Assembly: GCA_028281525.1 (NCBI GenBank) | Contig: JANQJR010000023.1 | Location: forward strand, 1 to 39,098 | From: Magnetovibrio sp. | GTDB taxonomy: Bacteria > Pseudomonadota > Alphaproteobacteria > Rhodospirillales > Magnetovibrionaceae | DNA: 39,098 nucleotides | Direction of reading: 5' to 3' | Shown here: one piece after another, positions 1-28,020 of the stretch | Position numbering within the stretch: position 1 is the first letter of the stretch | How the letters are laid out: every line of letters begins with the position of its first letter | Made by a program: the position numbers and the translations under genes | The notes under the pieces: generated by a model | Told to the model about the DNA's origin: nothing | The model's database searches: none | The model's input: only the letters and a program-made list of their open reading frames with translations

Positions 1-332
1 AAAGACGCCGAAAAGCCGAAGGCTGAGAGGCGGTCCGCAGGCGCATAAGCGCCAAGGATGAAGGGCAAAACCCTTCACAAATCCTACCCCCGCAACCAAC
101 GAAGGGGACCCTGGCGCCTAAATGACGCCAGGCAAGCCCCGGAGATCTAGAAAAGCTTCGTGAGATGAGACGGGAGTCGAAATCGAGCTTAGCTTGCCTG
201 CAGTTCTCAAACCCAGCCCAGGGCGGTCTTTGGCGTTTAGCTGCTTTGAGTGAAGCGTTCTTGGCCATCCGCAGCTCATTCATATGCCGCGCGTTTGTCT
301 CGGTGCAGTTGTTACCTAAATCGTTGAGCTTT
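1..332. other. Non-coding left edge, no gene recognised
   Basis: I see no convincing gene in this stretch. There is a short hairpin at about 60-77 (GAAGGG, loop, CCCTTC). It lies downstream of the minus-strand gene that ends at 333, so it could include that gene's terminator region, but it has no clear T-tract. Confidence 0.3.
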
Positions 333-1469
333 TTATTCGTCGGTGGGGAGTTGGCATCGCTGAAGCGATGTCTGCAATATCTGCAGATGCTGTTTCGCAT
401 CGTCTGTTGTCGCCAAGGCCTCCATAAGCACATTGGCGCGTACGCGGATCGCCTTTGTCGCTGCGTCTTCGAGATTGATGCCCAGAGGGGCGCCCACTGC
501 CCGGCAGAATTTATAGGTTCGTTCTACTTTCGCTAAGAGGGATTCCAAGTTCGTCGTTTCGATGGTACCCGAATGCGCATCGTCCGTCAGATCGTCAAAC
601 AGTTTCAAGATCAAGACGCCGAGATTTTTGATAAACCGTTCGAGCGTGCCCTTGTCGAGGTGACCATGCACGTTGCTGTTTGTCGGGTAATTGCTTTCCG
701 CTAACTCTCGCACCCGTTTGACGACGGTGATCAGGTCATCAACGCAGGAAATGACGATTGCCAAATCGAAACGGTTTAGATCGTTCGGCTCCTTGATATA
801 GCGTTCAATGCTATCGCTGGCCGAATTGACGGTTAGGCGCGCGGTCACACCAAGATTGGATAGGACTGTCGACACAGCCTTACTCAGGTGCAGGCACCTC
901 AGCAAGACAACCAGTATGTCCATGCGCATCAGATCATGTGATAGCGCACGGACATCCGGTGGATCTTCGGCGGCCAGCAGTTTATTGATTTCGCGTTGGT
1001 GGAATCCGATCAAGTGCGCAATCCGCCGGTTCAAATCCTGACGCCACCATGCGCGCCGGCGTCTTCCGGTCAACAGAACCGTATGTCGATCGATTAATAG
1101 ATAGAGACGTACGGCCGCTCGAGCAGTCGCACCAATGGGCATCTCTTGGATGTGCGGCTGATTTGTAAAGACGCCGGGTGCCGGAAGGGTTTCGGCAATT
1201 GCCCGAAACAACCGCCGCATGAGTTCGTCGTTTAAGGCATAAGCCAGTGCAGACATACGGTCCTGTACTAGGTCCGGGTCGAATACGCCTTGTTTGCTAA
1301 GTGCGCCATGTAATGCAACGACGACTTCAATATCGTCGGCAAGGCGCTCGTAATCCGCAGCAATGAAAACGTGGTTATTTGGCGGCTTGTCGGCCGGGAA
1401 AATCTGCGCCATATCCGCGAGTAGGTCTTCGAGCGCCGATCCGAAATCCTCCATGGACTTTGACGTCAT
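333..1469 (-). CDS. Hypothetical helical protein, 378 aa
   Basis: I do not recognise the family. The ATG start is preceded by a GGAG element about 11 bases upstream. The protein has no signal peptide and no membrane segment, is rich in Leu, Asp and Arg, and reads as mostly alpha-helical throughout (for example residues 1-25 and 330-375), so a cytoplasmic protein is likely. It is read away from the STAS/kinase pair across an AT-rich gap. This suggests, without proving, a link to that signalling module. Codon use is ordinary and the frame is open for more than 1.1 kb, so a real gene is likely. Confidence 0.7.
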   Translation of the reverse strand: MTSKSMEDFGSALEDLLADMAQIFPADKPPNNHVFIAADYERLADDIEVVVALHGALSKQGVFDPDLVQDRMSALAYALNDELMRRLFRAIAETLPAPGVFTNQPHIQEMPIGATARAAVRLYLLIDRHTVLLTGRRRRAWWRQDLNRRIAHLIGFHQREINKLLAAEDPPDVRALSHDLMRMDILVVLLRCLHLSKAVSTVLSNLGVTARLTVNSASDSIERYIKEPNDLNRFDLAIVISCVDDLITVVKRVRELAESNYPTNSNVHGHLDKGTLERFIKNLGVLILKLFDDLTDDAHSGTIETTNLESLLAKVERTYKFCRAVGAPLGINLEDAATKAIRVRANVLMEALATTDDAKQHLQILQTSLQRCQLPTDE

Positions 1470-1799
1470 TGAACATTCACTCCGTGGGTGCGTAAGAAAT
1501 TTTAATGCAAAACCGCCTACAGCTTGAATGGAATACTCGATAATAGCCGAATGTTAACTAAAAAATGCAACGTTCATCACTGAGCTGCGGCATTAAACGC
1601 TACTATAAAGGCGATGGGAGGCGATGTCGGGATTTTTTTAGGTCAATTTTTTTCAGTAGTGATTCACTGATCGTTTTAATATTAATGTGCATCGGAAATC
1701 TAACGGGTTTAGAATCATCGTTTAATTAGACGGTGTTACCGTGAACGAGGGTTCGTGCAGGCCTTAAGAAAAGATACCGATAGAAGGGGTTGGAATTTC
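1470..1799. promoter_or_regulatory. AT-rich divergent intergenic region
   Basis: This 330-base gap separates the minus-strand hypothetical gene from the plus-strand STAS gene and should hold both promoters. It has runs of T at about 1633-1650 and an imperfect palindrome at about 1654-1671 (TCAGT...ACTGA with AGTGATTCACT inside). I cannot assign a sigma factor. An AGAAGGGG ribosome binding site at about 1783-1790 serves the ATG at 1800. Confidence 0.4.
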
Positions 1800-2135
1800 A
1801 TGATTGTAAACAGTGAAACCGTAGGCGGCGTGACGGTTCTAAGCCCATCGGGCCGTATCGACAGTAATACGGCGGCGGTATTTGAAACTTCCGTCACCAA
1901 AGCGTTGGCTCACGCGCCGCGCATGATTTTGGACTTTAGCGATGTGCCCTACATCAGTTCCGCAGGCCTGCGTGTGGTTTTGGTGGCAGCGAAAAAGCTC
2001 GGGGCGAAGAAAGGTGGCTTCGCTCTCTGCGGGCTGAGCGAGAGTGTTTTAGACGTTTTCCAATTGTCCGGGTTCGCCAGTATTTTGACCATTATGCCGG
2101 ATCGTGACGCCGCGCTTCAGAGTATGGCCGGATAG
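1800..2135 (+). CDS. STAS-domain anti-sigma factor antagonist (SpoIIAA/RsbV-like)
   Basis: A single-domain STAS protein of 111 aa, the expected length for the family. In partner switching such proteins bind and sequester the anti-sigma or switch kinase when unphosphorylated, and are inactivated by phosphorylation on a conserved serine. The segment around residues 45-58 (DFSDVPYISSAGLR) holds the canonical site, with Ser53/Ser54 the candidates. I chose ATG 1800 over an upstream in-frame GTG at 1755 because it has a good Shine-Dalgarno and gives the usual STAS N-terminus. The ATP-binding kinase follows after 5 bases, so the two are almost certainly cotranscribed. The cognate phosphatase is encoded convergently next door. 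Confidence 0.9.
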   Translation: MIVNSETVGGVTVLSPSGRIDSNTAAVFETSVTKALAHAPRMILDFSDVPYISSAGLRVVLVAAKKLGAKKGGFALCGLSESVLDVFQLSGFASILTIMPDRDAALQSMAG

Positions 2136-2140
2136 CACGA

Positions 2141-2560
2141 ATGACAGCAGGCACGATCCAGATCGAGCTTGCAACCGACCGGTCCGCGATCGACCGGCTG
2201 ATGGCGGCGTTGGATCAGTTTTCGGAAGATACTGGGTTGCCTGAACGCGCAGAGAACCAACTGCGCTTGTGCCTCGATGAGTTAGTGGTGAACGCCATAT
2301 CTTATGGATTTGATGACGGTATGAACGGCGTCATTTTGGTCGCGGTTACATACCAAGGCGATAGCCTGGCGGTCAGAATGGAAGACAACGGCAAGCCATT
2401 CAATCCATTTGAGGAGGCGGCGAAGCCTGACTTGAAAGCGGATGTTGAGGAACGTGAAATCGGGGGACTGGGCGTCCTTTTTGTTACATCCTACGCAAAA
2501 GAATATGGCTACGAGCGGAATGGCGAAAAGAATGTCATCCGTTTATTGCTGGATGCATAA
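2141..2560 (+). CDS. RsbW/SpoIIAB-like serine kinase, HATPase_c domain
   Basis: A 139-aa stand-alone GHKL ATPase of the anti-sigma-factor/serine-kinase type. The N-box is visible at about residues 43-60 (LRLCLDELVVNAISYGF), followed by the EDNGKPFNP G1-type motif near 86-94 and an EIGGLGVLF G2-type motif near 107-115. In this family the protein phosphorylates the partner STAS protein and binds an output target, classically a sigma factor. No sigma factor lies in this window, so the target is unknown. It starts 5 bases after the STAS gene and ends 9 bases from the convergent phosphatase stop, so a shared bidirectional terminator or 3' overlap is likely. Confidence 0.88.
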   Translation: MTAGTIQIELATDRSAIDRLMAALDQFSEDTGLPERAENQLRLCLDELVVNAISYGFDDGMNGVILVAVTYQGDSLAVRMEDNGKPFNPFEEAAKPDLKADVEEREIGGLGVLFVTSYAKEYGYERNGEKNVIRLLLDA

Positions 2561-2569
2561 GGTGTGGCA

Positions 2570-4660
2570 TTAAGCCGAACTGATTTTCTTTAGCCGCAGG
2601 GCGATGGACGTGATGTCGTCGGCCTGCGGGGTCTCCCCGGCAAAAGACTGTACATCTTTCACAACGTGGCTGAGCAAATCGGTTACTTCCATCGTAGCGC
2701 CTGCGCTCAGTGCCGCCTCCAGCCGCGCTTCCTGATATTCCTTTTCTTCGGCGTTGATCGCTTCGGTGACTCCGTCTGTATAAAGATAAAGTGTGTCGCC
2801 TTCGTCCAGTTGTAGTTCGCCTTCCGTGTAGGACAAGTCTTCCATGACGCCGAGCGCGACGCCGCCCGTTCCGGGAATTTGCATTGGCGCGCCGCCACCG
2901 GCGGGTAAGCGATAGGGGCAGTTGTGGCCGCCGTTGGCATAAACCAGTTTGCCGGTTCGCAAGTTCAGAATTCCATAGAACACGGTTACGAACAGGTACT
3001 CTTTATTGTCGCCGCAAAGGGTGTCGTTTACGGCCGCCAAGCAGGCGCCCGGGGTATCCACCGCCGCAGCGGTAGCCCGTAGGATGCTCCGCGAGATGGC
3101 CATAAATAGTGCTGCCGGCACCCCCTTGCCGGAAACGTCGGCAATCACCAGCCCCAGCCGATCTTCGTCAAGATGGAAGAAATCGTAGAAATCGCCCCCG
3201 ACCTCTTTCGCTGGAACCATTTGGCCGCAGATGTGCAGCCGCTCCGTCGGCGGCAGGTCTTCCGGCAGCATCGCCAGTTGAACTCGGGTACCGATGGAAA
3301 GCTCATGCTGAAGGGCGACATAGGCATTTTTGGATTCAAGCGCTTCTTCCAGCTCCAGAATGGTGTTCGCCAAAATTTCATGCTGGTTTTGAATACGTTC
3401 GCGCAGGCGCGTCAAGGTTAATGCGATGGCCGCGAGTTCAATGCCGGATCGCGTATCTTCGTCGGCACCGCTGGCTGCTTCGACCCGCGCTTCTACATCG
3501 TCTAAGTCATGCAAAATGTTTTCGCGCGCCTTGGCATCAAGCGTGTTGGCAAGATTTGTGAGTTCCCGGCGAATGATTCGGGATTGGCGTTTGCTGCGGT
3601 TACGACGTGAGCGGGTCAGTCGGGCTAACTGCATGAGTTCGCCCCGGAAGCGGTCGATTGCGCCGCCGATCAAGGCAATTTCGTCTTTGCCTCGCGCTAT
3701 CTGTTGGCGGGGCGGGAAGGCGCCCTGAGATAAGGCGCGGAGCGCGCCGACCGCATCGGTCAGCGGATTGAGCGAGAAGCGCATATAGAACCAAAGGGCC
3801 AAGGTCGCGCAAAGCAAGAAGATGGTCGTGAACAGATAAATCTTCTGCTCCAAAGATTCAAACCGCTCGCGGCTCTCTGTTACATCTTTTACCGAAACCA
3901 CGTAACCAATCGGATTGGTGACACCGTCTACCGCACCGGCGGCAATCCAATAGCTACGATCTCCTAAATCTCTAGACTGAACGGCGGTGCGTGGGTCGTA
4001 GCTCTCCGCTTTCGTGATCGCATCCCATAATACCTGATCAGTTCCGGCGAGGTAGCGTCCGCGCCGATTGATCAGGAACACGTTGCCGTTCGTCAATGTG
4101 GCGAACTCGGCCAAAACGTTATCGATACCTGCCGATAGAACGGCTACGCCGGGCACCGGTTGGTCATCGCTTAGTGGCAGCGCCAGCACGACCATCGTTC
4201 CTTGAGTGATATCTACGGCTAAACCGGAAAGCTGTGAGATCTCACCACCCGCAACCCGTTTGATATCCGATTTCCCGAAAATCGGTGTTGGAAAATGCGT
4301 CGCCTGGGAGGAATAGATGACAGTTCCATCATTGGTAAGCACCTCTAAACGATCAATTATTCCTGCATCACTCAAGCTGAGGAACGTTTCCACCATTTGG
4401 TCACGAACCGCATCCGGGTCTTTGGCCTGTAGCGCCTGGATTGCGGCGTCATTTCCGCTCACCTTGGTCGAAGCTTTCGCCAATTCTACGACCTGGCCAT
4501 TTACGATTTTTTGCCAGAGGCTGCCTTGGTGGTCTGCAACGTTTGATCCCAGTTCGGTCTCGCGAAGCTCCGCCCATCGATCCAGGGCAAGGGATACTCC
4601 AACCGCCGATAATACGAAGAAGACGAGGGTGATTAAGGTCAGTTTATGGCGTAGCAGCAT
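2570..4660 (-). CDS. Membrane-bound SpoIIE/PP2C-type serine phosphatase with extracytoplasmic sensor
   Basis: A protein of about 696 aa with an N-terminal TM, a periplasmic Cache-like sensor region (about 25-260), a second TM (about 270-290), a HAMP-like stretch, a coiled coil (about 345-480) and a C-terminal PP2C/SpoIIE domain (about 480-695). Metal-binding aspartate motifs are visible: VGGDFYDFF, IADVSGKGVPAALF, LYTDGVTEA and QADDITS. It should dephosphorylate the STAS protein in response to an external cue, giving input to the partner switch. I prefer the ATG at 4660 because AGGGAGG lies 5 bases upstream; an in-frame start at 4690 is possible. It overlaps the upstream MFS gene by 17 bases, which points to translational coupling. 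Confidence 0.9.
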   Translation of the reverse strand: MLLRHKLTLITLVFFVLSAVGVSLALDRWAELRETELGSNVADHQGSLWQKIVNGQVVELAKASTKVSGNDAAIQALQAKDPDAVRDQMVETFLSLSDAGIIDRLEVLTNDGTVIYSSQATHFPTPIFGKSDIKRVAGGEISQLSGLAVDITQGTMVVLALPLSDDQPVPGVAVLSAGIDNVLAEFATLTNGNVFLINRRGRYLAGTDQVLWDAITKAESYDPRTAVQSRDLGDRSYWIAAGAVDGVTNPIGYVVSVKDVTESRERFESLEQKIYLFTTIFLLCATLALWFYMRFSLNPLTDAVGALRALSQGAFPPRQQIARGKDEIALIGGAIDRFRGELMQLARLTRSRRNRSKRQSRIIRRELTNLANTLDAKARENILHDLDDVEARVEAASGADEDTRSGIELAAIALTLTRLRERIQNQHEILANTILELEEALESKNAYVALQHELSIGTRVQLAMLPEDLPPTERLHICGQMVPAKEVGGDFYDFFHLDEDRLGLVIADVSGKGVPAALFMAISRSILRATAAAVDTPGACLAAVNDTLCGDNKEYLFVTVFYGILNLRTGKLVYANGGHNCPYRLPAGGGAPMQIPGTGGVALGVMEDLSYTEGELQLDEGDTLYLYTDGVTEAINAEEKEYQEARLEAALSAGATMEVTDLLSHVVKDVQSFAGETPQADDITSIALRLKKISSA

Positions 4661-6755
4661 GCCGGCCTCCCTGTCTCGTATTTTGAGCACCCCGATCCAA
4701 CAATAGGAACAGGATGATGCCGATCAAGCTGACGGAGGTTAGAATCATTGTCGCCCATTCGATGTTGAGGAAAGCTGCTAGTCCGCCGGCAACCAGAGGG
4801 CCGGCCAAATTTCCGGTGCGCTCAATGGCCCGGAACAGGCCCATGCCCGCATTTGTCGGTATTTGGTTCGGATCGGATTCGATGACGTTTTGCACCAGGG
4901 CAAGCTGAGGGGAGATGCTTAAGGCCTGGCCGAGCCCGATACAGGCAACGACAAAAGTCATCGGCCAAAACCCGCCGCCCGAAAGCACGAGGGCGATGCC
5001 TCCGATACCGGTGATCAGCCCGCCGAGGATGACCGAGCGCCCATGTGCTTGAGAGCGGTCCGACTGGCGCGCCGCCAAAGGCATCAATGCGACGACCGCG
5101 ACGCCGTAGAGCATAATGACGCGGCCAATGGAAGCTTCGCTGGTGCCGAGATCGATGAGATATAATGGAACCAGCAAAAAGATAACGCCGGTTAAGGCCA
5201 TCTTTGCCGGAATAGCGGTTAGGAACGCAATTGCGGCGAAGCGCTGATTCTTAAGCAGTGCAAATGGGAAACGCCGGCCTTCTTTGCCGGCCGGGGTTTT
5301 GGCTGCTGCGGTGGCGTGCGGTGATTCGTCCCGATCCAAAATCAAGGCAATGGCGACGCCTGAGAGGCCCGCCATACATGCGGAAACAAGAAATGTCGCC
5401 GTATAGCCGATTTTGTTGGCGAGGATACCGCCAATGGCAGGGCCGGCAACCCCCGCAACCAAAATAGCGCCGACAAAGACACCCAGATTGGCGGCGCGAG
5501 TTTCCGCGCTGGAATGAGCCATCACGTACCCTTGGCATGCGACGAAGACCATGGCGTAACCGAAACCGGTAACGGCACGGCTCAAGAGAAAAGACCCATA
5601 GTCCCAGGCCAAGAAAACGCCGACATACCCGAGAAGGGCTGGAACAACCCCCATGATGAACATACGACGGGGTCCGAACCGTTCGACCCATCCGCCGACC
5701 AAAAGCGATGAGAGCGCCAGAACCGCCATAAAGACGGCAATGGTTATGCCGCCGGCCAGGCTTGGATATTGCGCCAACCAGTTACCCGCCTCGTATTGGG
5801 CTGCTAACAGCGGCAGGAACGGTCGAGAAAGTTCCTCGGCGAACATAAAGACGAACAGCGTGATACGAATTGCCGGAATATTGCCAAACGTTAAATCCTT
5901 AAAGGCATAAGGCTCACCCGTTTGAAAGCGGGAGCGGAAGCCATCGATCAACGCATCAACTTTTTCTGCCGATGCCTGTTTGATTTGTGCTGCCCTCAGT
6001 TCTTTCGCTTCTTCCAGGACGTCCCATGCACGTTCGCCGATGATGTAAAGACACTGGTTCAGTTTGCGCTCAACACGTTCGACCTCCCGGATGGCCCGGT
6101 TATGCAATGTGTGTGTAAATCGACCGCTGGCGCCTTCGCCGAGTACGGCATCGATCGCTTGCATGGGGCCGAAGATGCGGCCATGAACGAAAAAGCTGAT
6201 CATTTCAAATGCGACCAGCAGGGCAATCAGTGCAGCGGTGATGATATCGTAAACCAACTCTTTCAGCTGTTGGGCGATATATCCAGGCCGTACGGAGACA
6301 CGCACCTCAGCGACATTCTGGCCCTTGGCAATAACCGGTGTCGGCGGGCGCTGAAGGTTGGCCGATATCGTCGATGGATCTATATCCGGAAGATAGGCAT
6401 GATGAAGTACCTGCGCGTTGGATGCCGAGGCGCTCAATATCTCGATGGCCGCAATGTCCGGGTTGCCCGACAAGATGTTCCCTAGATAACTTTGCATCCC
6501 TTGAAGATCGGAGACTGGGATGCCGTATCCGACTGCACGGCTTATGTCTCGGGCAACTTTAACCTCGACCAACTGGGCCTTGCTGTTTAGCTCCGGCGCT
6601 AGGGTTTTCTCGAAATCAAGGAACGATAGATAAGAAAACAATCCAAGCAAGGTCCCAAGCAGCACCACGCTCATAATCGTCAAACGGATCAGAAAGCGCT
6701 GGGAAAAGGGGGAATTCTTGCCGGAAACCAGATTGGGTTTTTGAGTGCTCATCAT
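4644..6755 (-). CDS. Sensor-like domain fused to major facilitator superfamily transporter, 703 aa
   Basis: The N-terminal third looks like a sensor: TM1 (about 24-46), an extracytoplasmic domain (about 47-172), TM2 (about 173-196) and a juxtamembrane helical stretch with many Glu and Arg (about 197-285). From about residue 300 the chain becomes a typical 12-TM MFS permease, including the GGWVERFGPRR loop between TM2 and TM3 (MFS signature region) and a long cytoplasmic loop near 475-495. Normal MFS proteins are about 400 aa, so the extra 290 residues are a true fusion. It starts directly after the stop of the upstream sensor gene with a GAGGAGA ribosome site. It may be a transporter gated by, or acting as, a receptor; that is inference. 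Confidence 0.85.
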   Translation of the reverse strand: MMSTQKPNLVSGKNSPFSQRFLIRLTIMSVVLLGTLLGLFSYLSFLDFEKTLAPELNSKAQLVEVKVARDISRAVGYGIPVSDLQGMQSYLGNILSGNPDIAAIEILSASASNAQVLHHAYLPDIDPSTISANLQRPPTPVIAKGQNVAEVRVSVRPGYIAQQLKELVYDIITAALIALLVAFEMISFFVHGRIFGPMQAIDAVLGEGASGRFTHTLHNRAIREVERVERKLNQCLYIIGERAWDVLEEAKELRAAQIKQASAEKVDALIDGFRSRFQTGEPYAFKDLTFGNIPAIRITLFVFMFAEELSRPFLPLLAAQYEAGNWLAQYPSLAGGITIAVFMAVLALSSLLVGGWVERFGPRRMFIMGVVPALLGYVGVFLAWDYGSFLLSRAVTGFGYAMVFVACQGYVMAHSSAETRAANLGVFVGAILVAGVAGPAIGGILANKIGYTATFLVSACMAGLSGVAIALILDRDESPHATAAAKTPAGKEGRRFPFALLKNQRFAAIAFLTAIPAKMALTGVIFLLVPLYLIDLGTSEASIGRVIMLYGVAVVALMPLAARQSDRSQAHGRSVILGGLITGIGGIALVLSGGGFWPMTFVVACIGLGQALSISPQLALVQNVIESDPNQIPTNAGMGLFRAIERTGNLAGPLVAGGLAAFLNIEWATMILTSVSLIGIILFLLLDRGAQNTRQGGRHAATP

Positions 6756-7556
6756 CTAAGTCTCCTCATCAATCTTCTGCAAGGAGGCCTCGAGTCCCGA
6801 GAGCTCATGGTTTGCGGTGCGGTATTGTTTGGCAAAAACCGTCATTTGCTGGGAAGCTATTGGATCAATGGTCGAGTTGACCGACTCTTCGATAAGCTCG
6901 AAATCGGTTGATTTGGCGGAGACCAGCGACGCAAGCGTTGATTCCAACGATAGAAAGTAGCGGCAAAGTGGGCGCGTAATCATCAAGATGATTACAATGG
7001 TTGCGAGGCTGCCGATGGCCCATAGCCATGCGGCACGCTTTAATGCGGTTGCTTCCAATCCAGCTATTTTGTCGGCGTGTTGCGTAACGGAGAAACGTAA
7101 CACCAATCCGCCGGTCGGCGCATTCAACATATCCCGGAGCCCAATTCCGAGTGCAACCGCCTCCGCCTCGTTCACGGTCCAAAGTGCGCCATCCGCCTGT
7201 TTGGCTGCTTGCTCCCAACCATCGGGGACGATATCGCCCAGGAAACTGCGGTCGGTGCTAAAAACGGTCCGCCCTGAGGCGTTAAAAACCTCCACCGACA
7301 GAATAGAAGCATCCCGGCGTTGTGCATCGTCCAGAAGGTTCGCTGCATTCGTCAAATTCTCAAGCGGCAAGCCGACCCGCATTTCGGCTTCCAGGGCTTC
7401 ACGGACATCTTCCAAAACAAATGCGTAGCGGTCGTTTATCGCGGATCTAAAGGCTTGATCGAACTTGTGTAGGCTGATGAAGGTCACCAGGGCGATTGCG
7501 ACGGCGCTTAAGCCTATAAAGCTCGTGATGATCATGAAGGATATGCTGTTGCGCAT
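6756..7556 (-). CDS. Two-TM membrane sensor-like protein without output domain
   Basis: A 266-aa protein with TM1 at about residues 7-28, an extracytoplasmic domain of about 140 residues and TM2 at about 173-194, then a helical cytoplasmic tail of about 70 residues. The layout is that of the input half of a sensor kinase or chemoreceptor, but no HAMP, kinase, GGDEF or phosphatase domain follows. It resembles the N-terminal part of the next gene in layout, so the two may pair through their sensor halves. Its stop codon touches the start of the MFS fusion gene, indicating one operon. Function is not established. Confidence 0.75.
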   Translation of the reverse strand: MRNSISFMIITSFIGLSAVAIALVTFISLHKFDQAFRSAINDRYAFVLEDVREALEAEMRVGLPLENLTNAANLLDDAQRRDASILSVEVFNASGRTVFSTDRSFLGDIVPDGWEQAAKQADGALWTVNEAEAVALGIGLRDMLNAPTGGLVLRFSVTQHADKIAGLEATALKRAAWLWAIGSLATIVIILMITRPLCRYFLSLESTLASLVSAKSTDFELIEESVNSTIDPIASQQMTVFAKQYRTANHELSGLEASLQKIDEET

Positions 7557-7590
7557 CGAAGGGGTTTGTCTTTCTGTCTTGGCGTTGGCG

Positions 7591-8676
7591 TTACTTCGGT
7601 GCCTTAATCACTTCGGTGATCGTAAGCAGATCCATGGGGGGGTATATTTTTAAGCGTTGCGCTGCGGACATATTGACCTTCAGCGAAAAGCGGGTGACAC
7701 GGTCAAACGCAATGTCGCCGGGTTTCGTGCCTTCGGTAAGGATGCGAACGGCTTTGGAAGCGCAGTACTGCCCAACGATGTAGTAGTTTCCGACCAGCCC
7801 AAATAGGGCGTCGCCTTTTGTCAGAAAAGCGTCAGACGCGGCAAAGGACGGTACGCCTATTTTTGCGATCGCATCGAAAAGGGGTTTGCGATTGACGTAA
7901 AGGAAACTGTCCGGACCGATATAAAAGAAGTCCGGCTTGAAGTCGTTCGCTTGCGCCACCAATTCGGGGATTGCACTTGCGTCGGTTTTCCCATCGGCTT
8001 TTATGGGAAGCGGCAGGGCTTTAAATTCGATCCCTTGTTCTTTGGTTAAGCTTCTCAGTGCCTCGACAGCGGTTACCGGGCTTTTTTGCTGGGGGTCGTA
8101 AATGGTGAAGATGCGCTTGATGTCGCGATAATTTTGCATGGCGCGAAGCTGCGAAGCGATATCCGGAACATGGGATACGCCGGTGAAGTTACCGCCCGAT
8201 GGTCCCCAACCTTCCGAAATGCCTGCGACACCGGGGTCCGAAACCATGCAATTCACGATGGGGATGTCCCGGACATAGTTGTTTGGGGTATCAGTGTTCC
8301 GGGGGCCGGTTATTCCCTGTGCCGAGGCCATGGACCAGGTATAAACCAAGTCAGGTTTCAGGCGTTTGATCTCTTCTACAATAGCGGGAAAGTTCGTTCG
8401 GTCTTGCTTCGGATTTCGGACGATAAGTTCAACCGGAATGCGGCGGTTTTGGAAGTAGTCCCTGAACCCGCGATCAGTTTCAGTTTCGCCGCGCCATTGC
8501 ACGACGAAAATCGTGAAAGGCTTTTCGGACTGACCGATCGATTGCGGTGCCTGGGCAAGTGCTGGAGAAGTTGCCCAAACGGCCAGTACGACAGCCGCTA
8601 AGCCTCCAGCACGTTTAGAGATTCCGCGCCGTATTCGCTTCCGTAAAAACAATGGTCGTTTCCCCGTGTTTCTCAC
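7591..8676 (-). CDS. Periplasmic ABC-type substrate-binding protein (ABC_sub_bind/DUF534 family)
   Basis: A 361-aa exported binding protein. The N-terminus is basic (RKRIRRG) followed by a hydrophobic stretch ending in ALAQ, a plausible Sec signal peptide cleaved near residue 42. The body reads as a two-lobed periplasmic binding fold with the family's features (FTIFVVQWRGETETDRGF near the mature start; VYTWSMASAQGITGP). Start codon is GTG, overlapping the upstream acetyltransferase gene by 62 bases, so the exact start is uncertain. There is no permease or ATPase gene nearby. The following genes are membrane sensors, so this protein may deliver a ligand to them rather than feed a transporter. 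Confidence 0.8.
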   Translation of the reverse strand: MRNTGKRPLFLRKRIRRGISKRAGGLAAVVLAVWATSPALAQAPQSIGQSEKPFTIFVVQWRGETETDRGFRDYFQNRRIPVELIVRNPKQDRTNFPAIVEEIKRLKPDLVYTWSMASAQGITGPRNTDTPNNYVRDIPIVNCMVSDPGVAGISEGWGPSGGNFTGVSHVPDIASQLRAMQNYRDIKRIFTIYDPQQKSPVTAVEALRSLTKEQGIEFKALPLPIKADGKTDASAIPELVAQANDFKPDFFYIGPDSFLYVNRKPLFDAIAKIGVPSFAASDAFLTKGDALFGLVGNYYIVGQYCASKAVRILTEGTKPGDIAFDRVTRFSLKVNMSAAQRLKIYPPMDLLTITEVIKAPK

Positions 8677-9427
8677 CCAACGCCAGCCCCAGTCGCTTTT
8701 CGTCTATCGCCGCCTTAAGTGCGCCGCAGTCTCTAATGCCGACATGGTGCGTCGCATTTCCCTCGTGGCCGAAAAAAGGACGCAGCAAGTTACGATAGAC
8801 CACCAGACGATCCATGCCACCATATTTTACGATAAAATCAATAACCTGAAATCCAGCAGCCATCAGGCTTTTCAAACTATAAAAATTCATGGGTGAACAG
8901 GTGGCCATCAAGTGCGTATAGCCGGTACAGGCTGCATAGCGCGTCCGAATTTCATTCATAAAACGGTGAATATGGCGTCCTCTATATTGTTTGATGATGC
9001 CTGAACCATCGAAATGCGCCACGCGAAGCTGCTCATCAGTTGACAAACCGGCCGAACTGCCGAGATTGTCGGCATCTCGCATAGGGAAAGAAAGTACTGT
9101 GTATCCCACCAACCGATCGCCTGCAAAGGCCCCGAGCGTACGACCGCGTTGCGTTATGTGTGCGGCCATGAACTCCTTCGTATCCGGTCTTAGCAAATGT
9201 GGATGCGGCAAGGTTTGGACGATCTCCAGGTGGGTTTCGAATAATCGGTTCAGATCGTTCTCGGTTAGAAACTTGAGAGTGATACCCGCGTGCTCAGCAT
9301 CCTCCGGTTCTCTATGAGTTCCGGATTCCATATTAAGTACGCCAGCCTCGTCAAATGGCCAAGGGGGTGGCACTCGGGGTGTTGGGTCGGTGAACGCTGT
9401 CGTCTCCACAATATTTCTTTCGTACAA
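8615..9427 (-). CDS. GNAT-family N-acetyltransferase-like protein
   Basis: Up to 270 aa. A GNAT-like core is seen at about residues 50-215, including AGDRLVGYTVLSF (beta strand 4 region), GSGIIKQYRGRHIHRFM in the place of the acetyl-CoA-binding loop, and the CSPMNFYSLKSLMAAGFQ segment typical of the C-terminal half. Substrate unknown. The longest frame begins with TTG at 9427; a GTG at residue 7 or ATG at 9331 are alternatives, and I cannot decide because no strong ribosome site is visible. It is the first gene of the minus-strand signalling operon and overlaps the binding-protein gene. Confidence 0.72.
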   Translation of the reverse strand: MYERNIVETTAFTDPTPRVPPPWPFDEAGVLNMESGTHREPEDAEHAGITLKFLTENDLNRLFETHLEIVQTLPHPHLLRPDTKEFMAAHITQRGRTLGAFAGDRLVGYTVLSFPMRDADNLGSSAGLSTDEQLRVAHFDGSGIIKQYRGRHIHRFMNEIRTRYAACTGYTHLMATCSPMNFYSLKSLMAAGFQVIDFIVKYGGMDRLVVYRNLLRPFFGHEGNATHHVGIRDCGALKAAIDEKRLGLALGEKHGETTIVFTEANTARNL

Positions 9428-9982
9428 ATAATAATGAATTCATGGAATAATTGTCATATTCCTCCGATTTTCCATTCAGTGCAACCGGGTTAGAATGGGG
9501 CATTACCCTCAATAATATTATTATTAAGAAGCAACGAGGAAATTTTAATTCGCGAGATTTTTTACCGCAGCAATAACGGAGAAATCTTATTCCGTTGGAA
9601 TAAGTATAAAACGGGAATTAGACAAAGCTGTAGGCCACTCTCGTTTTTTACTTAATTTAGCGGAGATTCGTTATGGTCAGCAAGGTTCCAGTTCTAAGCC
9701 CCATACACCGGCGACTTTAACTCTCCGCTGCTGTTGGGTAACAAACACGCTTCCGAATTTCACCGTGGCCTTGTCATTGCTCCACTGTCGAAAGAGGCAA
9801 TCTGATCGTGAAGGATGGAAAGCTGCACTAAAATGCGTTCGCCATAACCTTGGGTGAGCATAGCGGCATCTGGGTCTTACGCCCGTTCGGCGGAGGTGAT
9901 TGCTTTCAAAAAGAGAACATTGGTATGACGGGCCTCAATAACCTGTCTCGCCGACCGGTTCCAAAAGCATTTGCGCAGCTCG
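9428..9982. other. 555-base intergenic region with palindromes and possible gene remnant
   Basis: This gap lies between the end of the nir operon and the start of the signalling operon. The part at 9430-9660 is AT-rich, with AATAATATTATT at 9511-9522 and a perfect inverted repeat CTTATTCC-gtt-GGAATAAG at 9586-9604; it probably holds the promoter for the acetyltransferase operon. At 9760-9981 the minus strand reads like coding sequence broken by an internal stop, a possible decayed gene I cannot name. Confidence 0.4.
9586..9604. promoter_or_regulatory. Perfect 8-bp inverted repeat, operator-like
   Basis: CTTATTCC and GGAATAAG are separated by three bases. No T-run follows on either strand, so a binding site for a dimeric regulator is more likely than a terminator. 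It lies 160-180 bases upstream of the acetyltransferase operon. Confidence 0.35.
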
Positions 9983-10747
9983 CTAAACTCCTAACTGTTC
10001 GATCACCAGATCGATCATGGCGGCGTCAGCACCGATGGGACCAAGGTAGTGGATATTGTTCCTGTTGGGCGCTTTGCCGATGGCTTCCGGGATATCATCC
10101 TGGGCGTGCGACCCTTCGGCTGCAAACAAACCGACGACATAAATTCTTCCGCGCAAAGACGGCAGCACCTTGCCGATATGGGGAAACTGGTCCAGATATG
10201 CGGTTTCAACCGACCGGAAAACACGTTGAGTCCGCAGGTCTCTCGCATGCCGTTCGGTCGTTCGAAACGAGGCGTCGCTGGCGGTCGAACCATGTCCGAC
10301 AATCAAAACCGTTACGTCCGTATCCAAAAAACCGTCGTCTGTAACCGTTCGCTGGATGCGGCGGCTGATCAAATTGACCATACCAGACGACAACCCGATG
10401 GGTTGCTCGTAGGACACGTGTTGCCCTTTCAAGCAGGCCTGTTCGATTTTTTCGGGAATGATCCGCTGGGTGAACATACCGTCGCACATGAACATCGGCA
10501 CGACATGGACCGGCTGTTCACCGAAACGGGCCATGGCCTGATCAAGTGACGGGGCGCCGTAAAGTACGGCCGCTTCGACACTGCCGAATTTACCGCTCGC
10601 CCGCAATTGCGCCGCCTGCTCGAGAAGCTGCTTGTTCGGGCCGATGCACCGTTCGGAACCGTGACCGACCAGAAGAAGTCCCCGGTTTCGCCAGGAAAAC
10701 GGATCAGTGGCTGGTGCCCGCCGAGAAGTTGATCTTATTGTAGACAT
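9983..10747 (-). CDS. CbiX/SirB-type sirohydrochlorin chelatase in nir operon
   Basis: A 254-aa protein with two CbiX-like halves. Each begins with the GHGS metal-binding histidine motif: LLLVGHGSER near residues 24-33 and VLIVGHGST near 147-155. In the second half the other histidine element is intact (EGSHAQDDIPEAI), while in the first half the matching position reads GMFTQRIIPE, with Phe in place of His. The family inserts Co or Fe into sirohydrochlorin. In this operon the likely job is iron insertion to give siroheme, the substrate of NirDLGH. The gene overlaps the end of nirN by 44 bases and is last in the operon. Confidence 0.85.
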   Translation of the reverse strand: MSTIRSTSRRAPATDPFSWRNRGLLLVGHGSERCIGPNKQLLEQAAQLRASGKFGSVEAAVLYGAPSLDQAMARFGEQPVHVVPMFMCDGMFTQRIIPEKIEQACLKGQHVSYEQPIGLSSGMVNLISRRIQRTVTDDGFLDTDVTVLIVGHGSTASDASFRTTERHARDLRTQRVFRSVETAYLDQFPHIGKVLPSLRGRIYVVGLFAAEGSHAQDDIPEAIGKAPNRNNIHYLGPIGADAAMIDLVIEQLGV

Positions 10748-12275
10748 TGTATTTGCCTGAGGGCTTTTTCATCGGGATACGCTTCACTTCTACGAGCGTT
10801 TTGTCGTCGTAGATCACCAAAGCACCGTCCATTTCCCAGATACTGACGAGAGCGTGGGAACCGTCTCGGGTATACTCAACATGCGCCGCCGTCTTGCCTG
10901 GTTTGGGCCTGAGCGTCTTGACGATTTCCAGCGTGCGTTTGTCGATCACGTGCATGGCGTCGCGGTGTTTGCCGAAAAACACATCGACCCAGGCGTAGTG
11001 GGAGTTTTCATGGGAGCGCATGAAGAAACCGGGACCCAGCGTCTCGATGCGTTTGACCGTTTTCCAGGTTTCCATGTCGATGACACTGACCGCGTTTTCC
11101 TTGAGGTGGGGTGTCGCCATCACTTCGCGGCCCTTGTATTCAAAAATGATTCCCGATCCCAAATGCGGCATGCTGGACAGCTCCAGATCCGAGACCTTTT
11201 TCTTCACGTCCAGATTGACCACCTGGCCATTCTTGGCGTTGCGCGCCGCGCCCATCACTGCGGAATAGGCCTGGTCGAAAAAGAAATCGTCCATGAAGTC
11301 GTCGATCTTGATGCGCCGGATGCCGAACGGCTGCTCGTGCTGGACGACGGCTTCGACCTGATCCTTGCGGTAATTGTGTACGAAGTTCCCGTAAATGGGT
11401 TCCGCATCAGGATCGTAGGACAGCTCCCAGATTTCCTTGATATCTTTCATGGCGACGATGAAACTCTGGCGTGGCCGGGCGTTGTATACGGCACTGACCC
11501 GGGACGTCTTGCCATTTTCGTCAGAGGCTTTGACGATGCGGAAAGGTGAGAGGTCTTCCGCATTCAAGATGACGATCGAATGGGGCAGGAAGTTGCCGGC
11601 CATGACCCATTTCCCATCGGACGAGACGGCGATATTTCGCGTGTTAATTCCGGCGCGGATTTCGGCCACGGGTTGTAGGGTATAAAGATCGTATTTGCTG
11701 ACCCAGCCGTCACGCGAGCCGAAATAGACAAACCGGCCGTCCGGCGAATACTTGGCGCCACCGTGGAGCGCGTAGCGGGACGGGAACCGCCAGAGTGATT
11801 CGAAACTGTCTCCGTCCAGGATGGTCACGTGGTGATCGCCCGTCTCGACGACGGTGAACAGATTCAGCGGATCGGACGAATGCACCGGTTTGTCGCCAAG
11901 TGACGACACCGCGTTGTGCACGACATGAGTCTCAAACATCTGGTCCATGCCCCACTCGGGGATGTGATCAAGACGCGTGTAGACGTACGCCGCCACGTCG
12001 GCGATCTGTTTTTCATCAAGCGTTTCGGAAAAGGCCGGCATCTGGGTTGCCGGACGACCGTTGGCGATGACCGTGAGCGCTTTTTTCTTGCGCAAGCGGC
12101 GCAGGTTCTCGGGCAAGAGCGCCGGACCGATCCGGCCCAACCGGTCATCTCCGTGACAGGCCGCACAGTGTTGCTGGTAGACGATCTGACCGTTCGCGGT
12201 GTCACCAGCCCACGCAGGAGAACCGGATGCCAGAAGAGCACCGCTTAGCAGCGCAACAAGTTTAAGCCGCAACAT
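10704..12275 (-). CDS. nirN: NirN, cytochrome c plus d1-type propeller (dihydro-heme d1 dehydrogenase)
   Basis: About 523 aa. A Sec signal peptide (about 1-23, cleaving after AWA) is followed by a cytochrome c domain with CAACH at residues 37-41 and a C-terminal cd1-type eight-bladed propeller. It is a paralogue of NirS; in Pseudomonas NirN performs the last oxidation step of heme d1 synthesis in the periplasm. I call it NirN rather than a second NirS because it sits among the biosynthesis genes after nirJ and diverges from the NirS-type HPGPGANW region. The ATG at 12275 fits the signal peptide and overlaps the nirJ stop by 14 bases; longer upstream frames are unlikely. Confidence 0.9.
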   Translation of the reverse strand: MLRLKLVALLSGALLASGSPAWAGDTANGQIVYQQHCAACHGDDRLGRIGPALLPENLRRLRKKKALTVIANGRPATQMPAFSETLDEKQIADVAAYVYTRLDHIPEWGMDQMFETHVVHNAVSSLGDKPVHSSDPLNLFTVVETGDHHVTILDGDSFESLWRFPSRYALHGGAKYSPDGRFVYFGSRDGWVSKYDLYTLQPVAEIRAGINTRNIAVSSDGKWVMAGNFLPHSIVILNAEDLSPFRIVKASDENGKTSRVSAVYNARPRQSFIVAMKDIKEIWELSYDPDAEPIYGNFVHNYRKDQVEAVVQHEQPFGIRRIKIDDFMDDFFFDQAYSAVMGAARNAKNGQVVNLDVKKKVSDLELSSMPHLGSGIIFEYKGREVMATPHLKENAVSVIDMETWKTVKRIETLGPGFFMRSHENSHYAWVDVFFGKHRDAMHVIDKRTLEIVKTLRPKPGKTAAHVEYTRDGSHALVSIWEMDGALVIYDDKTLVEVKRIPMKKPSGKYNVYNKINFSAGTSH

Positions 12276-13461
12276 GGCGTTTACTTCGATACGGGGTTGT
12301 CTCAACACGATCATTTTCTGTTGCGCAACCGATCTCCTCGTCGGTGAGATAGCAGGCCGGGTCCTCGGCCCACGGATCATCCGTCACCTGCAGGGCGCGT
12401 ACCCGGGTATTGCCGTTGCAGATGGCCATATATTGACACTGGCCGCAGCGTCCCGTGACCTGGCGCGGATGCTGTTTCAGGCCGGCCATGATCGGGTCGG
12501 ATGTGTCCATCCAGATTTCTGAGAACGGACGCTCCTTGACGTTACCGAGGTCGTAGTGCCACCACATGGTATCGGGATGCACATTTCCCAGATTGTCGAT
12601 ATTGGCCACATTGACGCCCGATGCGTTGCCGCCCCATTGCTCGAGCTTACCGCGCATGTGTTTTTCTGCTTCCGGGTGGTTTTTCCGGATCCAGTGCAGC
12701 AGATAGACGCCGTCGGCATCGTTGTTGCCGGTCACGAAATCCCGCTCGCGACCTTCGCGTACATCATTCAGCGCAGTTTCGAACAAGATGTCCATCGCGC
12801 GGCGGGTCACTTCGCGGTGCGCGTCGTCCATGCGGTTGGTGTTGCCCCGGCCAGCATAGTTCAGATGCGACAGGTAGAACTTGTCGATGTCTTCTTCGTC
12901 CATCAGCTTGAGCAGTGCCGGGAGCTCAGAAGCATTGTCCATGGTCATGGTGAATCGCAGCCCGACCTTGATGCCGTTCTCACGGCATAGACGTGCGCCC
13001 TTGAGTGAAGCCTCAAATGCGCCGTCCATGCGGCGGAAGGCATCATGCGTTGCGCCGATGCCGTCAAGGCTGATCCCCACATAGTCGTATCCAATCGCGG
13101 CGATGTCATCGATATTGGACTCATCGATCAGGGTGCCGTTGGTCGACAGTGCGGTATAGAAACCCATCTCCTTGGCGCGCCTTGACACGTCGAAAATATC
13201 CGGTCTCAACAACGGCTCGCCACCGGACAGGATCAGTACCGGCACCCGGAAAGCCTTCAGGTCATCCATCACCGTATGGACCTGTGCTGTAGACAATTCA
13301 CCCGGGAAGTCTGTGTCAGCCGATAGGGCGTAGCAGTGTTTGCAATTCAGGTTGCACCGGCGGATCAGGTTCCAGATGACCACAGGCCCCGGTGGGTTAC
13401 GTCTCGGCCCGACGGGTGTGGGCTTCACAAGTTCTTTCATGAACTGACTGATTCTGAACAT
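12262..13461 (-). CDS. nirJ: NirJ, radical SAM heme d1 biosynthesis enzyme
   Basis: A 399-aa radical SAM protein. The CxxxCxxC cluster motif is at residues 36-43 (CNLNCKHC), and a cysteine-rich SPASM-type C-terminus (CGQCQYMAICNG, then further Cys) should bind an auxiliary Fe-S cluster. NirJ removes the propionate side chains from didecarboxysiroheme on the way to heme d1. Length and both cluster regions match the family. It is 13 bases downstream of nirH with a TAGGA ribosome site, and overlaps the start of nirN. Confidence 0.95.
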   Translation of the reverse strand: MFRISQFMKELVKPTPVGPRRNPPGPVVIWNLIRRCNLNCKHCYALSADTDFPGELSTAQVHTVMDDLKAFRVPVLILSGGEPLLRPDIFDVSRRAKEMGFYTALSTNGTLIDESNIDDIAAIGYDYVGISLDGIGATHDAFRRMDGAFEASLKGARLCRENGIKVGLRFTMTMDNASELPALLKLMDEEDIDKFYLSHLNYAGRGNTNRMDDAHREVTRRAMDILFETALNDVREGRERDFVTGNNDADGVYLLHWIRKNHPEAEKHMRGKLEQWGGNASGVNVANIDNLGNVHPDTMWWHYDLGNVKERPFSEIWMDTSDPIMAGLKQHPRQVTGRCGQCQYMAICNGNTRVRALQVTDDPWAEDPACYLTDEEIGCATENDRVETTPYRSKRHVAA

Positions 13462-13474
13462 CGAACTGTCCTAT

Positions 13475-13966
13475 TCAGGCGACCAGCCGGAGACCGGTCT
13501 TTTTCAAAATTCGGGTGCTGTAAAGAATCTCATGCGCCCCGAGGCTGTCGCCGAGCAGCAACTCCACGACTTTCGCCTTCTCCTCGACTTCCGCACGGCT
13601 GCGGCCGTGGATCATGGCGAACAGGTTGTAGGGCCAGTCCGGCAGATGACGCGGTCGGTGGTAACAGTGCGAGACGAAATCGAGCGCCCCGATGTCCTTG
13701 CCCGCCCGTTGGATGTCGGCATCGCGAACATCCCATACGGACATGCCGTTGGCCGAGAACCCAAGGCGGTAATGGTTAGGCACCGCCCCAATACGGCGGA
13801 TGATACCACTGTCGAGCATGCGCCGGACCCGGGCCATGACGTCGTCAGCATCCAGCCCAAGGCGTTTGGCTAGGTCATGGTACGGACGCGGGACAAGCGG
13901 CAGGCCGCCCTGCGTGGCCTTGATGATCAGCCGGTCTACGGTGTCGATGAGGGGCTTGTCACTCAT
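13475..13966 (-). CDS. nirH: NirH, siroheme decarboxylase subunit (Lrp/AsnC-like)
   Basis: A 163-aa protein with an N-terminal Lrp/AsnC-type winged-helix region (about 5-65) and a ferredoxin-like second domain. The motif SHCYHRPRHLPDWPYNLFAM closely matches the corresponding stretch in NirL, so these two form one subfamily pair. Together the four Lrp-like Nir proteins decarboxylate siroheme to 12,18-didecarboxysiroheme; they are enzymes, not regulators. Assigned as NirH because it is fourth in the order D-L-G-H and just before nirJ, as in Pseudomonas aeruginosa. Its ATG overlaps the nirG stop (ATGA). Confidence 0.9.
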   Translation of the reverse strand: MSDKPLIDTVDRLIIKATQGGLPLVPRPYHDLAKRLGLDADDVMARVRRMLDSGIIRRIGAVPNHYRLGFSANGMSVWDVRDADIQRAGKDIGALDFVSHCYHRPRHLPDWPYNLFAMIHGRSRAEVEEKAKVVELLLGDSLGAHEILYSTRILKKTGLRLVA

Positions 13967-14406
13967 AGGTCGAACCTCAGGCCGATAAAGTACTCTTCCA
14001 GCTTGGGCATGTTGACGACTTCCAGACCGGTTTCCGCCTCGATCTCGTCAATGACTTCCGAGATCCGTTCCGGTGTTTCCGTGGCCAGCACGAACCACAT
14101 GTTCAGTTTGTGGTCGCGGGCGTAGTTGTGCGCCACTTCGGCATGGGCATTGACGATCTCCGTCACCGCGTCGAAGCGGTGTTCGGGCACGGAAATAGCC
14201 GCCAGCGTCAAGCCGCCGCCAAGGCGTTCGGCATGGTACATGGGGCCAAACCGGCTCAACAGCCCTTGGTCAAGCATGCGCTCCAACCGCGAGATCAACT
14301 CTTCCTCGGAGGTGTCGAGCGTAGCGGCGATTTCGGCATAAGGGTGCTCGGACACGGGAAAGCCGCCTTGAAGTTCATTGATAATCTGGCGGTCAAGCGT
14401 ATCCAT
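13963..14406 (-). CDS. nirG: NirG, siroheme decarboxylase subunit (Lrp/AsnC-like)
   Basis: 147 aa, the usual NirG length, when started at the ATG at 14406 (MDTLDRQIINELQGGFP). A longer frame begins at 14469 but lies within nirL. The stop/start is TGATG, indicating tight translational coupling. The protein has a winged-helix N-terminus and the stretch VAHNYARDHKLNMWFVL, matching the NirD motif with HNY and NxWFV; it therefore pairs with NirD, while NirL pairs with NirH. It acts in siroheme decarboxylation. Confidence 0.9.
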   Translation of the reverse strand: MDTLDRQIINELQGGFPVSEHPYAEIAATLDTSEEELISRLERMLDQGLLSRFGPMYHAERLGGGLTLAAISVPEHRFDAVTEIVNAHAEVAHNYARDHKLNMWFVLATETPERISEVIDEIEAETGLEVVNMPKLEEYFIGLRFDL

Positions 14407-14912
14407 CAGGCGGCCCCGCATTTCAATTCGGGAGCGGCATGATACCGTGCGCCCTTCTGCTTGAAGCACTGGCCGCTGAACAGGATATCGTGCGGACAGT
14501 CCTGCAGTCCCGTTTGCCGATTGAGCCGGTCAAGTTGCCGGCGCACGGTTTTACGGTCCTTGCCATGGATCATGCAAAACAGGTTATAGGGCCAATCCGG
14601 CTGACGGCGCGGCCGTTCGTAACAGAGTGTCACGCAATCGAACTGTATCGCTTTGTGGGCCAGTCCCGGCAGTAACTGGTCGGGCACATCCCAGACAACC
14701 ATTGCATTGGCGCGATATCCCAGTTCCCGATGACGTACGATAACACCGAAGCGTTTGACGACACCGGTGGAAATCAATCGCCGAAGGCGCGATAACACCT
14801 GACCTTCGGACAGACCGAGCCATCGGCCCACTTCGTCATAGGGTCTGGGGCACAGAGGCAAACCATCGGCCAGCGCCCCCAATAACCTTTCGTCTGTTCC
14901 GTCGATCACCAT
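14406..14912 (-). CDS. nirL: NirL, siroheme decarboxylase subunit (Lrp/AsnC-like)
   Basis: 168 aa, close to known NirL. It carries the winged-helix Lrp-like N-terminus (about 5-65) and the LCYERPRRQPDWPYNLFCM motif shared with NirH. The C-terminus is longer than in NirD/NirG and contains several Cys. In well-studied systems NirD and NirL form a heterodimeric decarboxylase related to archaeal/sulfate-reducer AhbA-AhbB. The gene overlaps nirD by 7 bases and nirG by the TGATG junction. Confidence 0.9.
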   Translation of the reverse strand: MVIDGTDERLLGALADGLPLCPRPYDEVGRWLGLSEGQVLSRLRRLISTGVVKRFGVIVRHRELGYRANAMVVWDVPDQLLPGLAHKAIQFDCVTLCYERPRRQPDWPYNLFCMIHGKDRKTVRRQLDRLNRQTGLQDCPHDILFSGQCFKQKGARYHAAPELKCGAA

Positions 14913-17655: not shown

Positions 17656-17757
17656 CGTCTGTCTCCTGTTCCTCGACCCGCTCCAACTGGCGTTGATGCG
17701 CCGGGCGGGATTAGGTTTTGAGCTGTCGTAGCATGGCATGGTCTCGAAACGGCGCAC

Positions 17758-17771
17758 TTGATCTTGATCAA
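17758..17771. promoter_or_regulatory. FNR/NNR/DNR-type box for the nirE operon
   Basis: TTGAT-CTTG-ATCAA is a perfect match to the FNR-family consensus. It lies 103-116 bases upstream of the nirE start on the minus strand. A TACGAC sequence at 17725-17730 (minus strand) is a possible -10 at the spacing expected for a class II site. Oxygen limitation and/or nitric oxide control is the natural reading. Confidence 0.8.
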
Positions 17772-17861
17772 TAACGAGGAAAATGTCCTGCGTATGCCCT
17801 TATAGAGAAACGAAATAAAATTTTTTCGGCAAATTCCCGCTTCATCAAAAAATCTCTCTGT

Positions 17862-17875: not shown

Positions 17876-17942
17876 GGAATGGATATTCCAAGAGGCTTAA
17901 AACCCTCAGACTACCAGTGAATATCTCAATGGAGGGACCAAC

Positions 17943-27992: not shown

Positions 27993-28020
27993 GCTGCGGC
28001 TTGGATGAGAACACCCAACC

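What the first reader, a model, noticed from the sequence alone, without database searches (positions are those of the whole stretch)
1800..9427. Partner-switching module wired to an orphan binding protein and transporter-like sensors
A STAS antagonist, an RsbW-like kinase and a Cache-type membrane SpoIIE phosphatase sit with a second sensor-like protein, an MFS-sensor fusion, a periplasmic binding protein without permease and a GNAT enzyme. Overlaps and touching genes on the minus strand (8615/8676, 6756/6755, 4644/4660) argue for one operon. Partner switching is well known; input through a binding protein plus an MFS fusion is not a layout I recognise. Inference: a periplasmic ligand, seen by the binding protein, controls the phosphatase or MFS protein. 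The output target of the kinase is not in the window.
Basis: partly seen in the sequence, partly recalled or inferred. Interest (0 to 1): 0.72.

Follow-up and report, generated by a model that had tools for sequence, protein, structure and literature searches.

The report
Binding-protein/MFS sensor cassette
Three neighbouring bacterial genes - a binding protein, a sensor and a transporter that carries a matching sensor - recur together in many Proteobacteria beside protein-phosphorylation switches or secretion systems, and look like an undescribed receptor that reads a chemical outside the cell.

Summary
The genes are real and placed as described. The conserved unit, however, is a trio: a Cache-type sensor (sens2), a Cache-HAMP protein fused to a 12-helix MFS transporter (MFSf), and a PF04392 binding protein (PBP). 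Among the best 80 of 208 relatives of MFSf, from Alpha-, Beta- and Gammaproteobacteria, sens2 lies beside it in 79 and the PBP in the same cluster in 79. SpoIIE lies within 7 kb in 41 of 80, SpoIIE+HATPase+STAS in 26; other copies sit in type VI secretion loci or beside a Ser/Thr kinase. Partner switching is thus one output of several. sens2 is homologous to the N-terminus of MFSf and co-varies with it; the PBP co-varies with the MFS part. So the 'orphan' binding protein probably serves the MFS. Paralogs that lost key MFS residues sit with SpoIIE in 9 of 11 loci, which favours signalling. Ten literature searches found no description. Ligand, transport and kinase target are untested. The cassette is patchy: 0 of 5 other genomes of the window's genus have it.

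The parts
1800..2135 (+). STAS protein, anti-anti-sigma-type switch (SSAGL motif)
   Evidence: PF01740 1e-19; TIGR00377 80.1 bits, cut-off 53.45; aligns with 4hyl and SpoIIAA 1th8_B
2141..2560 (+). RsbW/SpoIIAB-type HATPase Ser kinase
   Evidence: PF13581 3e-20; aligns with SpoIIAB 1tid over the E..N box
2570..4660 (-). Membrane SpoIIE (PP2C) phosphatase with extracytoplasmic segment and HAMP-like linker
   Evidence: PF07228 1e-48 at 508-700; hydrophobic segments 17-35 and 284-302; 44% identical, full length, in G045/Thalassospira
4644..6755 (-). MFSf: Cache-HAMP sensor (about residues 16-285, nt 5901-6755) fused to a 12-helix MFS domain (about 287-698, nt 4644-5900)
6756..7556 (-). sens2: membrane protein with one extracytoplasmic Cache domain and a cytoplasmic helical tail
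7591..8676 (-). Periplasmic binding protein PF04392 (TrpX-like) with signal peptide; start may be 8652
   Evidence: PF04392 1e-19; profile matches 6hni 7e-29, 3lkv, 3lft; near MFSf in 79 of 80 loci
8615..9427 (-). GNAT-like acetyltransferase, optional member; start uncertain (9427 TTG or 9331 ATG)
   Evidence: sub-threshold Pfam match; homolog within 7 kb of the trio in 20 of 80 loci

Best explanation
The minus-strand genes encode a receptor complex, best called a binding-protein-fed MFS transceptor, that here drives a partner switch. The PBP captures a small periplasmic solute, probably amino-acid-like. Loaded PBP docks on the MFS part of MFSf. The Cache domains of sens2 and MFSf form a heterodimer that reads PBP docking or the transport state of the MFS and passes it through the second membrane helix and HAMP to the cytoplasmic coils. 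The co-encoded membrane SpoIIE phosphatase responds by dephosphorylating the STAS protein, which then captures the HATPase kinase and frees or blocks the kinase's client. Shown here: gene conservation, homology of sens2 and the MFSf sensor, folds, conserved phosphatase/kinase/STAS domains, co-variation. Inferred: every physical contact, the ligand, direction of signal flow, whether the MFS still transports, and the client.
For: Trio kept in 79/79 of 80 loci, order sens2-MFSf-PBP in 75. In 385 alphaproteobacterial genomes MFSf occurs in 24 and sens2 in 26, both in 21. SpoIIE within 7 kb in 41 of 80, same strand and at most about one gene away in 32 of these 41; the label needs at least 6-7 changes on the MFSf tree. 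sens2 homologous to the MFSf sensor. Distance matrices of 41 loci: sens2 with MFSf N-terminus rho 0.82, PBP with MFS part 0.73, N-terminus with its own MFS part only 0.51; partial values 0.72, 0.62, 0.06, stable when two large clades are removed. Paralog c10 is a full-length MFSf homolog (hhalign 100%, 586 columns) that lost E307, Y400, Q408 and K518 in 7 of 7 and lies near SpoIIE in 9 of 11 loci: a transporter turned receptor. Folds.
Against: No contact, ligand or transport was tested. SpoIIE is absent in 39 of 80 loci (some on short contigs); of 56 loci with 7 kb on both sides it is in 30, and 5 of 56 have neither SpoIIE, VgrG nor the kinase. The SpoIIE protein has its own sensor region and might not need the trio. 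HAMP in MFSf leads into the MFS, not into a known output domain, so the sensor may regulate transport instead. c10 keeps 119 of 280 conserved MFS cells, with some positions such as R393 and P516 in 7 of 7, so its loss of transport is not proved. Matrix correlation is indirect and the sensor columns align poorly. MFS-only relatives without sens2 exist (G074, G252, G403).
Confidence: 0.5

Rival explanations
1. Transport first: the trio is a binding-protein-dependent MFS carrier whose Cache-HAMP parts gate transport; SpoIIE or T6SS genes are only co-regulated neighbours.
For: HAMP runs straight into the MFS domain. In window numbering R297, P516, R642, G442, G450 and G648 are invariant and E307, R393, Q408, K518, E645, R646 nearly so in 77 MFSf, as expected of a working carrier. 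PBP tracks the MFS part.
Against: c10 paralogs that lost several of these residues are kept with SpoIIE; SpoIIE adjacency arose or was lost repeatedly.
Confidence: 0.25
2. The MFS part is a DHA1-type exporter of a metabolite made by neighbours (GNAT, racemase, formyltransferase, ATP-grasp), and PBP and Cache domains sense the exported product.
For: MFS part is closest in fold to VMAT/NorA/SotB antiporters and carries the GPxxGG stretch (recalled as the antiporter motif). Modifying enzymes recur: GNAT 20, formyltransferase-like 14, Asp/Glu racemase-like 13, Ala racemase-like 5 of 80 loci.
Against: No biosynthetic enzyme is constant; fold does not show direction of transport.
Confidence: 0.15
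3. Ordinary SpoIIE/RsbW/STAS partner switch with an unrelated transport operon beside it by chance.
For: The window's genus relatives lack it; 39 of 80 loci have no SpoIIE.
Against: 41 of 80 against roughly 0.4-2% expected, in several separate branches.
Confidence: 0.04

Closest known systems
RsbU-RsbV-RsbW / SpoIIE-SpoIIAA-SpoIIAB partner switching; SiaABCD
   Same: PP2C phosphatase, STAS antagonist and HATPase kinase together
   Different: Input genes sens2, MFSf and PBP are not part of those systems (recalled); SiaA model scores 56 bits against a cut-off of 700; no sigma factor or diguanylate cyclase among the ten ORFs scanned at 333-12380
UhpC-UhpB (MFS sensor plus histidine kinase)
   Same: A transporter-family protein used as a receptor; PMC8871633, passage seen: UhpC senses glucose-6P and activates UhpB
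   Different: Here the MFS is fused to its own Cache-HAMP, has a PBP, and no histidine kinase was found among the scanned neighbours in the window
Solute-binding-protein-stimulated receptors (LuxP-LuxQ, TorT-TorS type; names recalled)
   Same: A binding protein next to membrane sensors; PMC9602780, passages seen, lists chemoreceptors, sensor kinases, c-di-GMP enzymes and Ser/Thr kinases as partners
   Different: Partner here is a Cache/HAMP-MFS fusion with a Cache partner; SpoIIE phosphatases and MFS proteins are not in the passage seen
Binding-protein-dependent transporters ABC, TRAP, TTT
   Same: PBP plus membrane carrier
   Different: The three families named in PMC9602780 do not include MFS; here the carrier is an MFS protein
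Yeast Snf3/Rgt2 receptors
   Same: MFS transporters turned receptors, as proposed for c10 (PMC12740885, abstract start in listing)
   Different: Eukaryotic, different output, no binding protein or Cache domain

Membership tests
SpoIIE/RsbW/STAS partner-switching module | PP2C phosphatase + HATPase kinase + STAS protein in one locus | tested here: met
   Pfam above cut-offs for all three; alignments to solved relatives
SpoIIE/RsbW/STAS partner-switching module | STAS serine phosphorylated by the kinase and dephosphorylated by the phosphatase | not testable with these tools
   Only the SSAGL motif is seen; needs phospho-assay
SpoIIE/RsbW/STAS partner-switching module | Client of the kinase (sigma factor or other) known | tested here: inconclusive
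   None among ten ORFs at 333-12380; client may lie elsewhere
SiaABCD | SiaA equivalog score | tested here: not met
   56.2 bits against a cut-off of 700
ABC importer | PBP encoded with permease and ATPase | tested here: not met
   None in the ten window ORFs scanned; ABC-ATPase motifs within 6 kb in 3 of 80 loci (motif search only)
TRAP/TTT transporter | PBP encoded with DctQM- or TctAB-type membrane subunits | tested here: not met
   No such Pfam hit in the ten window ORFs scanned
DHA1-type MFS transporter | 12-helix MFS fold with conserved polar residues | tested here: met
DHA1-type MFS transporter | Proton-coupled transport of a substrate | not testable with these tools
   No assay
Cache-domain receptors | Extracytoplasmic Cache fold between two membrane helices | tested here: met
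UhpC/UhpB-type transceptor | MFS sensor paired with a histidine kinase | tested here: not met
   No histidine kinase among the ten window ORFs scanned

The most novel reading that the evidence does not exclude
A new class of envelope machine: a binding-protein-dependent MFS carrier whose own Cache-HAMP sensor pairs with a separate Cache subunit, working as a transceptor that plugs into different Ser/Thr phosphorylation outputs (SpoIIE partner switches, type VI secretion loci, a Cache Ser/Thr kinase), with transport-dead copies kept as pure receptors.
Probability: 0.3. Interest if true: 0.85.

Novelty: new variant of a known kind. Interest (0 to 1): 0.66.

Why it matters
How partner switches of Gram-negative bacteria and many type VI secretion systems receive outside signals is mostly unknown. 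A three-gene receptor that recurs beside both gives a concrete candidate input that can be deleted and tested. If the binding protein really feeds the MFS, it would also add a fourth kind of binding-protein-dependent transporter to ABC, TRAP and TTT.

Tried and rejected
Chance neighbourhood: rejected by the counts. ABC-transporter remnant: rejected by the near absence of ABC-ATPase motifs and the constant MFS. Partner switching as the defining feature: rejected, since about half the loci lack SpoIIE. Type VI secretion as the window's output: rejected for the window, because its genome has no VipB match. ORF 333-1469 as part of the module: no Pfam hit and no tblastn match (E<=1e-3) in the loci held. 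Ligand: not settled; the PBP is closest to TrpX-like proteins (that these bind aromatic amino acids is recalled), and racemases, GNAT and formyltransferase near some copies hint at an amino-acid derivative only weakly. Cyclic nucleotide output: a class III cyclase-like ORF lies near in 6 of 80 loci, too few to generalise. A plain Foldseek search of the sens2 model was never accepted; only VIA second looks were run.

Limits: the 10 seed rows of alignment A1 were chosen among loci that already showed the trio (L012, L020, L021 left out), and the genome scan keeps the best 80 of 208 relatives, so 79 of 80 may flatter the cassette. The class survey is less biased: 24 of 385 genomes with MFSf, 21 of them with sens2. 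Pfam names of neighbour clusters rest on one or two members each. Gene starts outside the window come from my own simple gene finder. The tree is a quick one with long branches. The SpoIIE null density is from Alphaproteobacteria only, while the 80 loci also include Beta- and Gammaproteobacteria.
Full report
What is there. The window holds, on the minus strand from 9427 down to 2570, GNAT, PBP, sens2, MFSf and SpoIIE, with overlapping or touching ends; on the plus strand STAS (1800-2135) and HATPase (2141-2560) converge on SpoIIE with 9 bases between the stop codons. Pfam supports STAS, HATPase_c_2, SpoIIE, MFS_1 and ABC_sub_bind above their cut-offs; GNAT and HAMP are below theirs, and sens2 has no hit. 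Promoter-like and terminator-like sites in 1-10800 are no more frequent than in shuffled sequence, so the transcript structure is not shown.

Relatives. The full-length MFSf protein matches in 9 of 60 genomes searched, the window's own included: 0 of 5 of the same genus, 1 of 12 of the same family (MFS part only) and 7 of 42 of the same order. Around the matches the same neighbours appear: sens2, MFSf and PBP, sometimes GNAT; only G045, with the contig length of Thalassospira lucentensis L022, also has SpoIIE and HATPase, the latter convergent as in the window. Ten plasmid records, nine of Azospirillum and one of Vibrio, carry a match.

Survey. A scan of 84,980 species genomes with the MFSf alignment A1 found 208 relatives, the best 80 of which were kept. 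sens2 lies beside MFSf on the same strand in 79 of 80 (L090 is cut by its contig start) and the PBP within the cluster in 79 of 80 (in L025 it is 6.7 kb away). The order is sens2-MFSf-PBP in 75 and PBP-sens2-MFSf, as in the window, in 3. In an even draw of 385 alphaproteobacterial genomes MFSf is found in 24 (E<=1e-60), sens2 in 26 (E<=1e-15), both in 21. The three MFSf-only genomes (G074, G252, G403) match mainly the MFS part; the five sens2-only ones are weak (E 1e-16 to 1e-24).

Outputs. Within 7 kb of the trio: SpoIIE in 41 of 80, HATPase 33, STAS 28, GNAT 20; SpoIIE, HATPase and STAS all in 26. Of the 41, 15 have SpoIIE on the same strand within 300 bases, 17 within 1300 bases, 9 further off or on the other strand. 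VgrG-type clusters are found in 19 of 80; Pfam confirms VgrG, DUF6931 and PAAR in a Vibrio plasmid and TssA, Hcp, VipA, VipB beside the Vibrio furnissii copy, whose VgrG gene starts about 40 bases after the PBP gene. A cluster of 8, in one member a protein kinase with dCache and HAMP, lies near mostly oxalobacterial copies. Of 56 loci with at least 7 kb on both sides, 30 have SpoIIE, 18 VgrG/DUF6931, 7 the kinase (some have two), and 5 none of these. On a quick tree of 77 MFSf proteins the label SpoIIE alone needs 7 changes, at least 6 forced by well-supported branches; type VI needs 2. So the trio has been joined to, or parted from, SpoIIE several times.

Null. SpoIIE has 85 matches in 115 alphaproteobacterial genomes and 4 in the window's genome, about 0.4% to 2% per 18 kb. 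The observed 41 of 80 is far above that even though the loci are not independent.

Co-variation. For 41 loci with all three proteins, distance matrices correlate most for sens2 with the MFSf N-terminus (0.82) and PBP with the MFS part (0.73); the MFSf N-terminus follows its own MFS part only at 0.51. Partial correlations are 0.72 and 0.62 for these two pairs and at most 0.20 for the other four; without the type VI and Magnetospirillum-type clades (22 loci) 0.68 and 0.55, with PBP-N-terminus at 0.26. I read this as a sensor heterodimer plus a PBP-MFS pair. It is indirect evidence.

Receptor-like paralogs. In 11 of 80 loci a second protein, c10, occurs, in 9 with a second sens2-like protein and in 9 with SpoIIE. 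It is a full-length homolog of MFSf (hhalign 100%, 586 columns, 17% identity) without a Pfam hit. Of 40 MFS positions conserved in at least 90% of MFSf, c10 keeps 119 of 280 cells in 7 sequences; E307, Y400, Q408 and K518 are lost in 7 of 7, while R393, P516, G450, P338 and G607 are kept in 7 of 7; of 7 conserved sensor positions it keeps 30 of 49 cells. This pattern suits a transporter turned receptor, as with yeast Snf3/Rgt2 (PMC12740885, listing only).

Literature. Ten searches gave no paper that describes the trio. Passages of PMC9602780 name ABC, TRAP and TTT as families with binding proteins and list receptor classes stimulated by binding proteins; PMC8871633 describes UhpC; PMC8276074 treats ABC and TRAP; PMC9545535 shows no mention of MFS in its type VI clusters. 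The library lacks most subscription papers, so absence is not proof.

Verdict. A conserved, undescribed receptor or transceptor cassette, here wired to a partner switch. The parts are of known kinds; the combination, and a PBP working with an MFS protein, is not one I could find described. Mechanism confidence 0.5.

Noticed in passing
L068:15349-17043 (also L069, L099): RsbW-like HATPase domain and class III nucleotide cyclase domain in one protein next to STAS (Pfam for L068; L069 and L099 by coordinates): a possible cyclic-nucleotide output of the switch.
   Followed up: partly
L069:6343-8178 and homologs in 10 further loci: c10: MFSf paralog that lost several conserved MFS residues, often with a second sens2 and SpoIIE.
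   Followed up: yes
L078:9177-20990: The trio sits directly upstream of VgrG, TssA, Hcp, VipA and VipB genes in Vibrio furnissii; similar in 14 other gammaproteobacterial loci.
   Followed up: partly
L044:8046-8921, L069:13761-14804, L044:13047-13961: Asp/Glu racemase-like (13 of 80 loci), Ala racemase-like (5) and formyltransferase-like (14) genes recur next to the trio (one member of each tested by Pfam); possible hint at an amino-acid-derived ligand.
   Followed up: partly
L140:6770-10424: An MFS protein without the sensor part next to two PF04392-like binding proteins, perhaps a simpler relative of the cassette.
   Followed up: no
L131 (G217:C23:170422-171189): sens2 match with one in-frame TGA.
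   Followed up: no
window 9983-19562: d1-haem and nitrite reductase genes: CbiX-like, two NirF/cytochrome cd1-type proteins plus a third at 17943-19562, NirDL-like siroheme decarboxylases, TP methylase.
   Followed up: no
window 19703-21451: NapC/NirT cytochrome fused to an ethylbenzene dehydrogenase haem domain.
   Followed up: no
window 27033-29815: RTX repeat protein followed by an ABC exporter-type protein.
   Followed up: no
window 333-1469: 378-aa minus-strand protein with no Pfam or NCBIfam match beside the STAS gene.
   Followed up: partly
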